DNA from: Candidatus Rifleibacteriota bacterium
Lineage (GTDB): Bacteria; Riflebacteria; Ozemobacteria; Ozemobacterales; Ozemobacteraceae
Length of the DNA: 64,000 nucleotides
Reading direction: 5' to 3'
Assembly: GCA_029565415.1 (NCBI GenBank)
Contig: JAKQOH010000032.1
Span: 1 to 64,000 of the forward strand
Made by a program: the position numbers and the translations under genes. Positions within the stretch are counted from its first letter, which is position 1. The number at the start of each line of letters is the position of its first letter. The notes below the pieces were generated by a model. That model did not search any database. It saw nothing but the letters and a program-made list of their open reading frames with translations, and had not been told where the DNA came from. This document shows positions 22,385 through 41,024 of this stretch, piece by piece.

Positions 22385-22412
22385 GTAGGGGCGGTTCGCG
22401 AACCGCCCCTAC
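22385..22412. repeat. Short palindromic repeat, copy B (perfect 28-base palindrome)
   Basis: Two 14-base arms, GTAGGGGCGGTTCG and its exact complement, with no loop. It lies about 100 bases after the stop of the secreted protein gene and upstream of the tRNA promoter. It is the clearest member of the family. Confidence 0.85.
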
Positions 22413-37068: not shown

Positions 37069-37128
37069 GCCACACACCTCCGACGAAAATGAAGCAAAAA
37101 ACCGTGGTGAGCGAGCACCACATTTCGA

Positions 37129-37215: not shown

Positions 37216-37245
37216 ACGTGGGCGGATCACGATCCGCCCCTACGT
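37216..37245. repeat. Short palindromic repeat, copy C
   Basis: A perfect 9-bp stem (37220-37228 with 37231-37239) lies inside ACGT ends. Read on the minus strand it begins GTAGGGGCGGATC, like the other copies. It is upstream of the phospholipase-D-like operon. Confidence 0.7.
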
Positions 37246-37321: not shown

Positions 37322-37344
37322 GTAGTGGCGCATCGCGATGCGCC
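37322..37344. repeat. Short palindromic repeat, copy D (variant)
   Basis: GTAGT followed by an 18-base perfect palindrome, GGCGCATCGCGATGCGCC (37327-37344). It stands 14 bases after the end of the dynamin-like gene, 77 bases from copy C. The stem may help terminate the ClpB-dynamin transcript. Confidence 0.65.
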
Positions 37345-37357
37345 GGGGGATGCCACA

Positions 37358-39145
37358 TCAGGTGCCGGCGGCCATGAAGGCGTTGATTTTTTTGCGGAGG
37401 GGCTCGAGCTCTGCGCGCACGGCGTTGATGTCGAAGGAGCGTTCCGAGGTGAGGGTGCGGACCTGGGACCGGATCTCGGTCTGCACCATGTCGACCCGCT
37501 GGATGAGGGACTGGCGGATGAAGTCGACGGCATACTCGACTTCGAGGCCGACCTTGTCGACGAGATCGTTTTTCATCTCGAGAAGCGTCTCCTCGCTGAC
37601 GGTCGCATGCTGGAAGAACTCTTTCACCGAGCGCTTGTTGGCGATGACCTGGGAAGCAAAGTAGGCGGCACCGGCGAACATGCCGACCGAGACCCCGAAA
37701 AAGATTGCGGCCAGATAGGCGAAGCTGAGGGACGAGACGATCTTGCCCGGTACATCGCTCAGGTCATACTGGATACTGAGGCTGCGCTGCTCGACGAACC
37801 GCTTGTCGTCGAGAACGGCATCGAACGACTGGCCGAGTTCGGCATACAACTGGTCGAGCGTGCATTTCATGCGCGTCGTTATATATTCATAGAGTTCTTT
37901 CAGCCGCGTGTTGACGACGAGGGGGTCGCGCTGGAGGCGGTTGAGGGCGGTCAGGTCGCCGATCGCCCTGCCGATCTGGTCATGAAAGGTCTGCTTGAGG
38001 TCGTTTTCGGCGGCGGAAATTTTCCCTTCGGCTTGTCGGAGTGTCGTGCGCAGCTTTTCGAGCAGACCGGCATTTTCCTTCAGGCGAGCCGAGACGGCGG
38101 ATTTTCCGATGGTGTCCGCCTCGAGTCGTTCTTCCAGGGCATGCTCGATACGCAGGATGCCGCGCCGGAGGTAATGGTGAAGCATCGCCTCGATCTCGAC
38201 CTCGCGCCGCTTTCCGCAGATCTCCTGGATTCGGTGCCAGAGGCGCCGGTTCGCGTCGCAGAAACTGCCGGCAGGCTTCCGGCCGGGATCGAATCCGATG
38301 CTGCGGGAGCGGGCCGGGCCGTCGACGGGGGCCTTCTCCCTCGCGCAGACGGGAAACACCTCGACGTCCAGAACGGGCACATAGAGGGTCTGCCCGAGCC
38401 GGGCGTTGATTTTATCGTAAGATGTATTCAACGCGGCGACGAGAGAGCGCCGGATCTCGGCGACGAGGGCGTCCCTCTCCTCCGCTTCGACCTCGTCGAT
38501 ACGGTTCACGACGAAAACGAGCTTCTTGAGATCGTTCGCGAGCAGCCGCTCCTCGAGGAAGAGACGTTCGGATTCCGAGAAGGGTTTGAGGGCCGAGATG
38601 ACGAAGATCACCACGTCCGCTGTCGGTATGAGCCCATACACGATCTCGGCGCGGGATTTCGCGATGTCGTTGATGCCGGGGGTGTCGATGACCGTCAGGC
38701 CGGCCGGCATGGCCGGGTGGGACATCCGGACGAGCTCGATCCGGTCGATGTTCTCGGGATCCGTCAGGAGCTTGGCGAAGGACTCCCAGTCGAAGGAGCC
38801 GCCGGGTATTCCATAGCCTGGCGTATGCGACTTGCCCGGCTCGATCCGGATCGGGTCCTTCGTACCCATCGGCTTGACATGGACGTTGAACGGGCCGGGC
38901 TCGAGGATCGTGACGAGGCTCGTGGTCGGTGTGACACCGGTTGGAAGCAGATCTTCGCCGAGCATCGAGTTGATCAGCGAGGATTTTCCCGCATTGAACT
39001 CGCCGACGACGAGCACGTGCGGACTTCTCCCGATGCGGTTGAGCAGCAACTGGTGATCGCCGATATCGAGCAGCATACGGCCCGCGATCGCCTTGAGAGG
39101 GGGAACGAGCTCGAGAAACCGTTCTGACGCTTTATTCTCTGTCAT
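37358..39145 (-). CDS. Bacterial dynamin-like GTPase
   Basis: 595 residues. GTPase motifs: G1 GEFNAGKSS (~48-56), G2 Thr in TPTTS, G3 DTPG, G4 NRID in place of TKxD. A helical stalk (~330-595) is interrupted by a hydrophobic paddle segment (AYLAAIFFGVSVGMFAGAAY, ~490-510), as in bacterial dynamin-like proteins that bend or fuse membranes. ATG 39145 lies inside the end of the ClpB-like gene (14-base overlap), so the two are translationally coupled. The upstream open frame extension is within that gene and is not used. Confidence 0.9.
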   Translation of the reverse strand: MTENKASERFLELVPPLKAIAGRMLLDIGDHQLLLNRIGRSPHVLVVGEFNAGKSSLINSMLGEDLLPTGVTPTTSLVTILEPGPFNVHVKPMGTKDPIRIEPGKSHTPGYGIPGGSFDWESFAKLLTDPENIDRIELVRMSHPAMPAGLTVIDTPGINDIAKSRAEIVYGLIPTADVVIFVISALKPFSESERLFLEERLLANDLKKLVFVVNRIDEVEAEERDALVAEIRRSLVAALNTSYDKINARLGQTLYVPVLDVEVFPVCAREKAPVDGPARSRSIGFDPGRKPAGSFCDANRRLWHRIQEICGKRREVEIEAMLHHYLRRGILRIEHALEERLEADTIGKSAVSARLKENAGLLEKLRTTLRQAEGKISAAENDLKQTFHDQIGRAIGDLTALNRLQRDPLVVNTRLKELYEYITTRMKCTLDQLYAELGQSFDAVLDDKRFVEQRSLSIQYDLSDVPGKIVSSLSFAYLAAIFFGVSVGMFAGAAYFASQVIANKRSVKEFFQHATVSEETLLEMKNDLVDKVGLEVEYAVDFIRQSLIQRVDMVQTEIRSQVRTLTSERSFDINAVRAELEPLRKKINAFMAAGT

Positions 39146-41024
39146 AGCATTTCTTGAGGACGAATGCATCCTCCTCAACCTCCACCTTGACCCGGTCATG
39201 GGCCGACACCGTGCGATCGAGCACGGCTTCGGCAATGAGTTCCTCGAACTTCATGACGATGCGGCGCATCGGGCGGGCCCCGAACTGGGGGTCGAACCCC
39301 TTCCCGACGGCCAGGGCGGCGGCAGCATCCGAAACCGTGTACGTGATCTGCTTCTGTTCCAGGATACGGGCGGCGCTTTCGGCCGCGAGTTTTTCGAAGA
39401 TGCGCTTCAATTCATCCTTCGTGAACGGGGTGAAGGGAATGATGCTTTCGATGCGGTTGATGATTTCGGGCCGAACCTTCCGCTTCAGCTCCTCGAGCAC
39501 CTTCGCCTGGATCGTCTCGAACTTCTTCTCGAAATCGTGCTGTTCGAGGCCGGCGTAATACTGGGTGCCGACGTTGCTGGTGATGATGACCAGAGCTTCC
39601 CGAAAGCTGGCCGTGTTTCCCTTCATATCCTTCACGTAGCCCTCGTCGAGCATCTGCAGAAAGATGTCGAACAGCTTTGGATCGGCTTTTTCGATCTCGT
39701 CGAACAGGACGACGGAGAAGGGGTTCTTGTTCATCAGCTTCACGAGCAGGCCGTCCTCGTCGCTGCCGACATAGCCCGGGGGCGAGCCCACGAGACGCGC
39801 CATCGTGTGGTCGTCGTAGAACTCGGACATGTCGAACCGGATCAGGCGGCGCTCGTCACCGAAGAACTCGGCCGCGATCGTCTTCGCTGTCTCTGTCTTG
39901 CCGGTTCCGGAGGGGCCGAGAAACAGGAAGCTGCCGATCGGTTTGCCGGGCTTTCTGATGCCGGCTCCCAACATCTTGAAGGCAGAGAGAATCGCATCCT
40001 TCGTACGTTTCTGGCCGATGATCTTCGTCTCGAAAGCCCGGGTGAGGGCCCCGATGCGCCGGGCGACCTCGTCGAGCTGGCGGTCGCCGACCACGGCGCC
40101 CGTACGCCGCGAGAGCACGTTCGAGACGTCTTCCGAGGTCAGGGCGGTATCGAAAAACGCGGTTTTTTCGCCGTCCCACTCGTCGAGAGCCTGTTCGAGG
40201 CGATCGATTTCGCCTTTTCCGATGGAGGCGATTTCGCGGGCGAGGACGCCGTCGAGCGCGGTGAGATCGCGGCGCAGCCGGTCTTTCCCCTCGCTGAATC
40301 GCTTTTCGGCGATCGCTTCCTTCATGAGATCGATCGCCTTGTCGGGAAAGAAGCGGTCGCGGATGTACTGATCCGAGAGTTTGATGATGGTGTCGATCGT
40401 CCGGTCGGGGACGACAACGCGGTACCGTGAGCCGATTTTTTTCCCGAGGCGGGTGAGAAGTGTCTTCAGTTCTGCTTCTGGCGGCTCCCCGATCGCGATG
40501 CGGATGAACCGGCGGGCGAGGGCCGGATCGTTTTCCTCGATCCAGCGTTTGAACTCCTGTTCGGTCGTGGCGCCGATCACCTGGAAATCGCCGCGCGCGA
40601 GGAACGGCTTGAGGTAGTTGGCGAAGTCAAAGCCGCCTGTCGAGTTGGTGCGGGTGAGCAGATGCAGCTCATCGATGAAGAGGATCGTGTCCTTCGAGGA
40701 CTGGAGCTCCTCGATGACTTTCTGGACGCGCTCTTCGAGCATGCCGCGGTAGATCGTGCCGCTGGCGATTGAGGCGAAATCGAGCTGGAACAGGCGCTTC
40801 CCTTTCAGTTTGTCGGGAACCCTGCCCGCCACGATCTCCTGAGCGAACCCCTCGACGATGCAGGTCTTGCCGACGCCGGGCGGACCGATCAGGACGGGAT
40901 TGCTCTTTCCCTCGAGGGTCAGGGCGTCGCACATGCGTCGGATCTCTGCGGCACGGCCGATCAGGGGCTCGAGAGCTCCCATTGCGGCGAGCGCCGTCAG
41001 ATCCCGACCGAATTCTTCGAGCAT
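39132..41024 (-). CDS. ClpB/ClpA-like double AAA+ ATPase without N-domain
   Basis: 630 residues with two AAA+ modules. D1: Walker A GPPGVGKT (~47-54), Walker B ILFIDELH and pore loop TIYRGM. D2: Walker A GPSGTGKT, Walker B VVLFDEIEKA and pore loop SPPGYVG. The C-terminal D2-small domain has FDPQFGARPMRR. The Clp N-domain is missing and the linker between modules is far shorter than the ClpB middle domain; no ClpP-binding IGF/L loop is obvious. It should unfold or remodel protein assemblies; the coupled dynamin-like GTPase is the obvious candidate partner. GAGGAG before ATG 41024 fixes the start. Confidence 0.9.
   Translation of the reverse strand: MLEEFGRDLTALAAMGALEPLIGRAAEIRRMCDALTLEGKSNPVLIGPPGVGKTCIVEGFAQEIVAGRVPDKLKGKRLFQLDFASIASGTIYRGMLEERVQKVIEELQSSKDTILFIDELHLLTRTNSTGGFDFANYLKPFLARGDFQVIGATTEQEFKRWIEENDPALARRFIRIAIGEPPEAELKTLLTRLGKKIGSRYRVVVPDRTIDTIIKLSDQYIRDRFFPDKAIDLMKEAIAEKRFSEGKDRLRRDLTALDGVLAREIASIGKGEIDRLEQALDEWDGEKTAFFDTALTSEDVSNVLSRRTGAVVGDRQLDEVARRIGALTRAFETKIIGQKRTKDAILSAFKMLGAGIRKPGKPIGSFLFLGPSGTGKTETAKTIAAEFFGDERRLIRFDMSEFYDDHTMARLVGSPPGYVGSDEDGLLVKLMNKNPFSVVLFDEIEKADPKLFDIFLQMLDEGYVKDMKGNTASFREALVIITSNVGTQYYAGLEQHDFEKKFETIQAKVLEELKRKVRPEIINRIESIIPFTPFTKDELKRIFEKLAAESAARILEQKQITYTVSDAAAALAVGKGFDPQFGARPMRRIVMKFEELIAEAVLDRTVSAHDRVKVEVEEDAFVLKKCYDRE

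What the first reader, a model, noticed from the sequence alone, without database searches (positions are those of the whole stretch)
37358..41024. Translationally coupled ClpB-like AAA+ ATPase and dynamin-like GTPase
The dynamin start codon lies 14 bases inside the ClpB-like gene. The AAA+ protein lacks the N-domain, has a very short middle linker and no obvious ClpP loop, so it looks like a dedicated disassembly motor. Pairing a dynamin-family GTPase with a Clp-type remodeler suggests a membrane-remodelling or membrane-protection machine not described in textbooks. A palindrome and a separate promoter mark the boundary to the phospholipase-D-like operon, which may or may not be part of the same function.
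Basis: partly seen in the sequence, partly recalled or inferred. Interest (0 to 1): 0.75.

Follow-up and report, generated by a model that had tools for sequence, protein, structure and literature searches.

The report
Mitofusin-like dynamin with dedicated unfoldase motor
In one lineage of uncultured bacteria, a membrane-shaping protein that resembles the one that fuses mitochondria is encoded as a unit with its own ATP-driven protein-pulling motor, which may take used membrane-protein assemblies apart so that they can work again.

Summary
The pair is real and conserved. A 630-residue two-ring Clp-type AAA+ protein without N-domain (AAA) overlaps by 14 nt a 595-residue dynamin (DYN). The organism belongs to Ca. 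Riflebacteria, near Ozemobacteraceae. The window and 7 of 7 related loci have AAA then DYN, spaced -14 to +17 nt, down to 60% / 45% identity and in changing neighbourhoods. In 39 genomes of the phylum both orthologues occur in the same 7 and in no other; one scan of species genomes found no full-length copy outside Riflebacteria. AAA is no misread ClpB: all 7 genomes also carry a ClpB-sized protein with Clp_N. It keeps both ATPase sites and pore loops but lacks a standard ClpP-docking tripeptide. DYN is predicted to fold like mitofusin/Fzo1 and BDLP, with a hydrophobic hairpin. A second dynamin (DYN2) occurs full-length in exactly the same 7 of 24 genomes of the order; in one genome AAA, DYN, DYN2 and a 1,209-residue dynamin stand in a row. 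Best explanation: AAA is a dedicated motor that disassembles DYN assemblies at the membrane, as proposed for Cdc48 on Fzo1. No interaction is shown. The palindromes beside it look like repeats. New variant of a known kind.

The parts
39132..41024 (-). AAA: N-domain-less two-ring Clp-type AAA+ ATPase, 630 aa, start ATG at 41024
37358..39145 (-). DYN: mitofusin/BDLP-like dynamin GTPase, 595 aa, start ATG at 39145
39132..39145 (-). 14-nt overlap of the AAA end and the DYN start
40743..40751 (-). AAA first-ring pore loop YRG (residues 92-94), 16 of 16 family members
   Evidence: coordinates computed by hand from residue numbers
40143..40289 (-). shortened middle insert of AAA, about residues 246-294, predicted two-helix hairpin
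39765..39776 (-). AAA second-ring pore loop GYVG (residues 417-420); GY[IVL]G in 16 of 16
39540..39557 (-). Y-A-G-L-E-Q at the place of the ClpP-docking loop (residues 490-495)
38978..39007 (-). DYN G1 motif VGEFNAGKSS (residues 47-56)
37628..37750 (-). conserved hydrophobic hairpin of DYN (residues 466-506), presumed membrane paddle or TM hairpin
   Evidence: (pLDDT under 50 there)
37322..37344 (+). palindromic repeat-like unit downstream of DYN; not taken as part of the machine
37220..37243 (-). second palindromic unit of the same kind
37103..37122 (-). terminator-like stem followed by a T run, between DYN and the phospholipase-D-like gene
   Evidence: 7 such sites found in the region, 4.2 expected

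Best explanation
AAA and DYN form one machine. DYN is a fusion- or tethering-type dynamin: it puts a hydrophobic hairpin into the membrane and assembles with itself, and perhaps with DYN2 and DYN3, in a GTP-dependent way. AAA is its dedicated motor: a hexamer that engages an exposed part of DYN, or of the assembled DYN complex, and pulls it through two pore-loop rings. Because it has no standard ClpP dock, this takes the assembly apart rather than degrading it, freeing dynamin for another cycle, much as Cdc48 is proposed to resolve Fzo1 clusters and NSF recycles SNAREs. Coupled translation makes motor and substrate together. Shown: the pair, its conservation, close spacing and co-occurrence, intact ATPase and GTPase motifs, predicted folds, missing N-domain. 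Inferred: hexamer formation, that DYN is the substrate, that the outcome is disassembly, and that the site is the cell envelope.
Against: No interaction, localisation or phenotype is known. Operon neighbours need not be enzyme and substrate. No AAA-DYN fusion was found among 29 hits. No AAA lies near the 7 more distant dynamin loci. Two genomes inside the clade, G012 and G016, lack the pair. All co-occurrence comes from one clade, so the genomes are not independent. The hairpin part of the DYN model has pLDDT under 50 and pTM is 0.58; global TM-scores to BDLP are only 0.28-0.31, so the overall arrangement is not matched. The G-L at the loop is invariant, so weak ClpP docking is not excluded. 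In 6 of the 7 genomes DYN2 is not beside the pair.
Confidence: 0.5

Rival explanations
1. AAA and DYN serve the same envelope process but AAA acts on other membrane proteins (a quality-control extractor like Msp1), DYN acting beside it.
For: Co-expression and co-occurrence fit this equally. In G001, G002, G003 and G005 M23-family peptidases lie downstream of the DYN3 gene, so the dynamin set sits near envelope genes.
Against: The close spacing with this one dynamin in the window and 7 of 7 loci, while other neighbours change, argues for a more direct link.
Confidence: 0.22
2. AAA feeds DYN to ClpP: regulated proteolysis of the dynamin by an N-domain-less ClpC derivative.
For: Full-length ClpP matches in all 7 pair genomes; the next relatives by sequence are mostly ClpC-type and the top four structure matches are ClpC chains from ClpC-ClpP complexes or a model of one (ClpB and ClpA follow closely); [ASQ]-G-L stands near the docking loop in 16 of 16.
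Against: The standard hydrophobic first residue is missing in 16 of 16, while 10 of 11 ClpA/ClpC-type control rows have [ILV]-G-[FLY]. Loop length does not decide: 33 residues here, 32 in two ClpBs, but also 33 in a ClpA-type row with the motif.
Confidence: 0.12
3. An anti-phage system combining an Eleos-like dynamin with a Dodola-like Clp ATPase.
For: PADLOC: DYN hits LeoA (79.3 bits), AAA hits PDC-M37B (121.1) and DolB (101.7). Bacterial dynamin defence systems exist, and Dodola and PDC-M37 are treated as duplicates (PMC11811056, passages).
Against: The AAA matches to these two families cover only the second ATPase ring. The NCBIfam LeoA-family cut-off is missed (21.8 of 325 bits). Occurrence follows the host tree with two gaps and is not scattered. 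No defence partner among the two downstream neighbours scanned beyond weak DrmC- and MkoC-type hits of the phospholipase-D-like protein.
Confidence: 0.08
4. Two housekeeping genes that are merely co-transcribed; AAA is a general chaperone of this clade.
For: No single-piece full-length ClpC-like match other than AAA is listed for the order, so AAA could fill in for ClpC; no interaction is shown.
Against: A ClpB-sized protein with Clp_N in 7 of 7 pair genomes already covers disaggregation, and AAA lacks the N-domain and a long M-domain. The pair stays together while neighbours change.
Confidence: 0.08

Closest known systems
Cdc48/p97 acting on the mitofusin Fzo1 (yeast, mammals)
   Same: An AAA+ motor acting on a mitofusin-fold dynamin; proposed to resolve its clusters after fusion (PMC6861704, PMC7555132, passages read)
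   Different: Here the motor is Clp-type and encoded with the dynamin; no ubiquitin step is known; action on DYN is not shown
BDLP (Nostoc) and other bacterial dynamin-like proteins (IniA, SynDLP, Campylobacter DLP1/2)
   Same: GTPase, helical trunk, hydrophobic tip; fold matches
   Different: About 12-18% identity in the structural alignments; my searches list no paper on a dedicated Clp-type partner
ClpC / ClpB / ClpA (Hsp100)
   Same: Both AAA+ rings, pore loops, D2-small domain; about 40-46% identity over the rings with ClpC- and ClpB-type rows
   Different: No Clp_N, short middle hairpin, no standard ClpP-docking motif, linked to a dynamin; separate branch, support 1.000, among 29 rows
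MAPL/MUL1 (BAM/GIDE domain ligase of mitochondria)
   Same: In 3 of 7 genomes a BAM/GIDE membrane protein follows DYN directly; MAPL promotes Mfn degradation (PMC4457424, passages)
   Different: No RING match; not beside the pair in the window and the 4 other genomes; GIDE proteins also occur in 5 pair-less genomes of the order
Eleos and Dodola anti-phage systems
   Same: A dynamin (Eleos), and a ClpB-like ATPase (Dodola, recalled)
   Different: Curated LeoA cut-off and LeoBC partner not met where tested; clade-bound occurrence

Membership tests
ClpB disaggregase | two AAA+ rings with Walker A/B and pore loops | tested here: met
ClpB disaggregase | N-terminal Clp_N domain | tested here: not met
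ClpB disaggregase | long coiled-coil M-domain | tested here: not met
   56-57 residues against 135 in two ClpBs
ClpB disaggregase | NCBIfam TIGR03346 cut-off | tested here: not met
   565.7 of 1232.1 bits
ClpC | Clp_N domain | tested here: not met
ClpC | ClpP-docking tripeptide [ILV]-G-[FL] (motif recalled) | tested here: not met
   0 of 16; [ASQ]-G-L instead
ClpC | placement in a ClpC clade | tested here: inconclusive
   AAA family is its own clade, support 1.000, outside the nine sampled ClpC-type rows; long branch, few references
Dynamin superfamily | Dynamin_N GTPase with G1, G3, G4 | tested here: met
   PF00350 89.9 bits against 27; G1 21 of 23, G3 23 of 23, G4 N..D 23 of 23
Mitofusin/BDLP-type dynamins | helical neck/trunk fold with GTPase | tested here: met
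   (predicted model, pTM 0.58; global TM-scores low)
Mitofusin/BDLP-type dynamins | membrane paddle or TM hairpin | tested here: inconclusive
   hydrophobic, conserved hairpin but pLDDT under 50
Mitofusin/BDLP-type dynamins | membrane fusion or tubulation activity | not testable with these tools
   needs biochemistry
Eleos defence system | LeoA-family dynamin at curated cut-off | tested here: not met
   NF041922 21.8 of 325 bits
Eleos defence system | LeoBC partner gene adjacent | tested here: not met
   AAA and the two downstream neighbours give no LeoBC hit; DYN itself hits LeoBC at 39.0 bits, and in L004 the next gene DYN2 at 34.4 bits
Dodola defence system | DolA partner gene | tested here: inconclusive
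   no DolA hit in the four window proteins scanned; the divergent gene upstream of AAA was not scanned with PADLOC
Cdc48-Fzo1 (works like) | AAA+ motor acts on the mitofusin-type dynamin | not testable with these tools
   no complex could be modelled or assayed

The most novel reading that the evidence does not exclude
A bacterial counterpart of the Cdc48-mitofusin cycle, hard-wired in one operon: a fusion-type dynamin whose used complexes are pulled apart by a dedicated, N-domain-less, non-proteolytic Clp motor, with a second and third dynamin as partners and, in one subclade, a BAM/GIDE membrane protein of the kind that regulates mitofusins in mitochondria. It would show that motor-assisted recycling of fusion dynamins exists in bacteria without ubiquitin.
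Probability: 0.3. Interest if true: 0.85.

Novelty: new variant of a known kind. Interest (0 to 1): 0.62.

Why it matters
Bacterial dynamins are widespread, but how their assemblies are reset is unclear (recalled). An operon that gives a mitofusin-like dynamin its own AAA+ motor makes the question directly testable with two purified proteins. It would also bear on whether AAA+ recycling of fusion dynamins is a eukaryotic invention or a general solution.

Tried and rejected
Ordinary ClpB with misread boundaries: rejected. Link to the phospholipase-D-like operon: judged unlikely; no match to that gene in the held flanks of 7 of 7 related loci, and L001 has the signal-peptidase-like gene directly after DYN. 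Palindromes as operon boundary: judged unlikely, since similar units recur at 22385-22412. The supporting pattern (4 matches at 3 places, 0 of 100 shuffles with as many) was drawn up after all three places had been seen, so its odds are flattering; the earlier, narrower patterns gave 2 matches each, reached by 3 of 100 shuffles. Sigma-70 promoter for the downstream operon: not found (consensus scan only). AAA-DYN fusion proteins: none with a Clp Pfam domain among 29 hits (7,996 candidates scored). Pair outside Riflebacteria: no AAA in 7 distant dynamin loci, flanks up to 10 kb but shorter for several. Plasmids: 10 records with a DYN match, all partial, and 1,668 with a Clp match, 60 of them listed; none of the 10 is among those 60, and adjacency was not examined further. 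Phage records: Clp matches of 41% or less in the 10 rows shown of 168. A survey over many phyla was not made: match tables are cut, so it would not have been exhaustive. Control rows: 'ClpA_G001' was read in a wrong frame by my script and 'ClpX_G005' is a single-ring protein; both were left out of the tree, and the 10 of 11 count excludes them and the two ClpBs. The Clp names of the unnamed-genome rows are mine, from length and motifs; of the four database rows called ClpC only P0198 is so named by a source in the listing. My spacing script missed L006; its value comes. Gene calls are mechanical and partly wrong (for example L087 around DYN3, L003 after DYN). PDB look-up of the GIDE protein found nothing. 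Not in print: (open-licence PMC full text only) list no paper whose title or abstract start concerns a bacterial dynamin with a dedicated Clp-type motor; one search gave one defence survey, of which passages were read. Searches served the organism, Cdc48/Fzo1 and GIDE.
Full report
What is there. On the - strand, AAA (41024..39132, 630 aa) and DYN (39145..37358, 595 aa) share 14 nt. AAA matches AAA, AAA_lid_9, AAA_2 and ClpB_D2-small; DYN matches Dynamin_N. The closest named relatives are from Ca. Riflebacteria / Ozemobacteraceae, so the window comes from that group; no whole genome is held for it.

Conservation. The protein database gives a cliff for each gene. DYN has 23 members including itself at 45-100% identity over 96% or more of its length, then 36% over 40% (best 120 of 2,660 listed). 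AAA has 15 further full-length members at 60-96% and one fragment, then others at 43% or less (best 120 of 7,998 listed). Longest-contig lengths coincide for 10 of 15 AAA clusters with a DYN cluster, which links them indirectly. One scan of the collection of 84,980 species' genomes gave 14 loci: 7 Riflebacteria loci with near full-length DYN (46-77%) and 7 others with the GTPase part only. AAA lies directly upstream in 7 of 7 of the former and was not found in 7 of 7 of the latter. Spacing in the window and the 7 loci is -14, -14, -8, -8, -8, -1, +2 and +17 nt. Neighbours differ: upstream an endonuclease I gene (window, L001), one shared open frame (L002, L003, L005), an M48 peptidase family (L004, L006) or another gene (L007); downstream a phospholipase-D-like gene (window), signal-peptidase-like (L001), GIDE protein (L002, L003, L005), DYN2 (L004), or an oppositely oriented frame (L006, L007).

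Distribution. Of 39 genomes of the phylum, 7 hold full-length DYN and the same 7 hold the AAA orthologue (60-86%); the other 32 have neither. 11 of the 32 have weaker, partial dynamin matches, and all 39 have some Clp match. All 7 are among the 24 genomes of the order. In a DnaE tree, 15 pair-less genomes are split with support 1.000 from a side with the window, the 7 pair genomes and two pair-less genomes, G012 and G016; branching within that side is partly weak (0.314, 0.754). Those two are small (2.8 and 2.7 Mb) and G016 also lacks a good ClpP match, so they may be incomplete; completeness is not given. The pattern is clade-bound, not scattered. AAA and DYN distances correlate (11 pairs, r = 0.90, 0 of 5000 permutations), as expected for joint inheritance.

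Partners. In L004 (G004) DYN is followed on the same strand by DYN2 (590 aa, 20 nt on) and DYN3 (1,209 aa, 330 nt on), both with Dynamin_N. Full-length DYN2 (over 540 of 592 residues) occurs in exactly the 7 pair genomes of the order; of the other 17, G020, G021 and G024 have partial matches and 14 none. Only in G004 is it beside the pair. A frame of 983-1,229 aa with a dynamin domain lies in 5 of 7 (G001-G005). In G001 and G005 DYN2 overlaps DYN3 by 4 nt, and M23-family proteins lie downstream of DYN3 on the same strand in G001, G002, G003 and G005 (M23 confirmed for one protein each of G001, G003 and G005, for G002 by similarity; the G002 DYN3 frame was hidden by a wrong gene call and is placed). 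In G002, G003 and G005 a 271-272-aa GIDE-domain membrane protein follows DYN by 27-29 nt; six other GIDE-bearing genomes of the order carry it elsewhere, five of them without the pair. MAPL, the mitochondrial BAM-RING protein, promotes Mfn degradation, and prokaryotic BAM proteins lack RING (PMC4457424, passages). This is a suggestive parallel, not evidence of function.

How it may work. Cdc48 clears ubiquitylated Fzo1 from fusion sites after membrane merging, proposed as an analogue of NSF (PMC6861704 and PMC7555132, passages). An N-domain-less threading motor without a standard ClpP dock, coupled to a mitofusin-like dynamin, fits the same role without ubiquitin: substrate choice would come from direct contact. 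That DYN is the substrate is inference (about 0.5). Rivals are listed. The defence reading is weak: the PDC-M37B and DolB hits of AAA cover one ring, dynamin hits are shared by DYN, DYN2 and DYN3, the curated LeoA cut-off is missed, and occurrence follows the host clade.

Verdict. A real, conserved, lineage-specific module that my searches of open full text did not find described; mechanism plausible, untested.

Noticed in passing
window 22385-22412, 37220-37243, 37322-37344: Short palindromic units, about GTAGGGGCG-N10-CGCC, at 3 places in the window (pattern drawn up after seeing them)
   Followed up: partly
L004 8082-17526 (G004): Four genes in a row: AAA, DYN, DYN2, DYN3, one motor and three dynamins
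   Followed up: partly
L005 11877-12695, L002 6514-7332, L003 12047-12859: BAM/GIDE-domain membrane protein directly after DYN in three genomes
   Followed up: partly
L086 1-6566, L088 1721-9802, L090 2-8264: DYN3 (with DYN2 before it in L086 and L088) followed by M23 peptidase-family proteins with SH3 domains, hinting at an envelope role
   Followed up: partly
L008, L010-L014: Six loci, five titled as myxobacterial or deltaproteobacterial and one as 'bacterium' only (L011), with two dynamin-like stretches about 3.3-3.4 kb apart (7.7 kb in L011), the second in a frame of about 1,000-1,100 aa; no AAA match there
   Followed up: no
P0130 and P0256 (database proteins): An AAA family member and a 1,098-aa DYN3-like dynamin have the same longest contig length (35,980), suggesting a second clustered case
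   Followed up: no
order of G005, 24 genomes: No single-piece full-length ClpC-like match apart from AAA listed for the 24, while 6 of 15 other genomes of the phylum have one
   Followed up: no
L002, L003, L005, upstream of AAA: A shared open frame upstream of AAA in three genomes; the L005 member has no Pfam match
   Followed up: no
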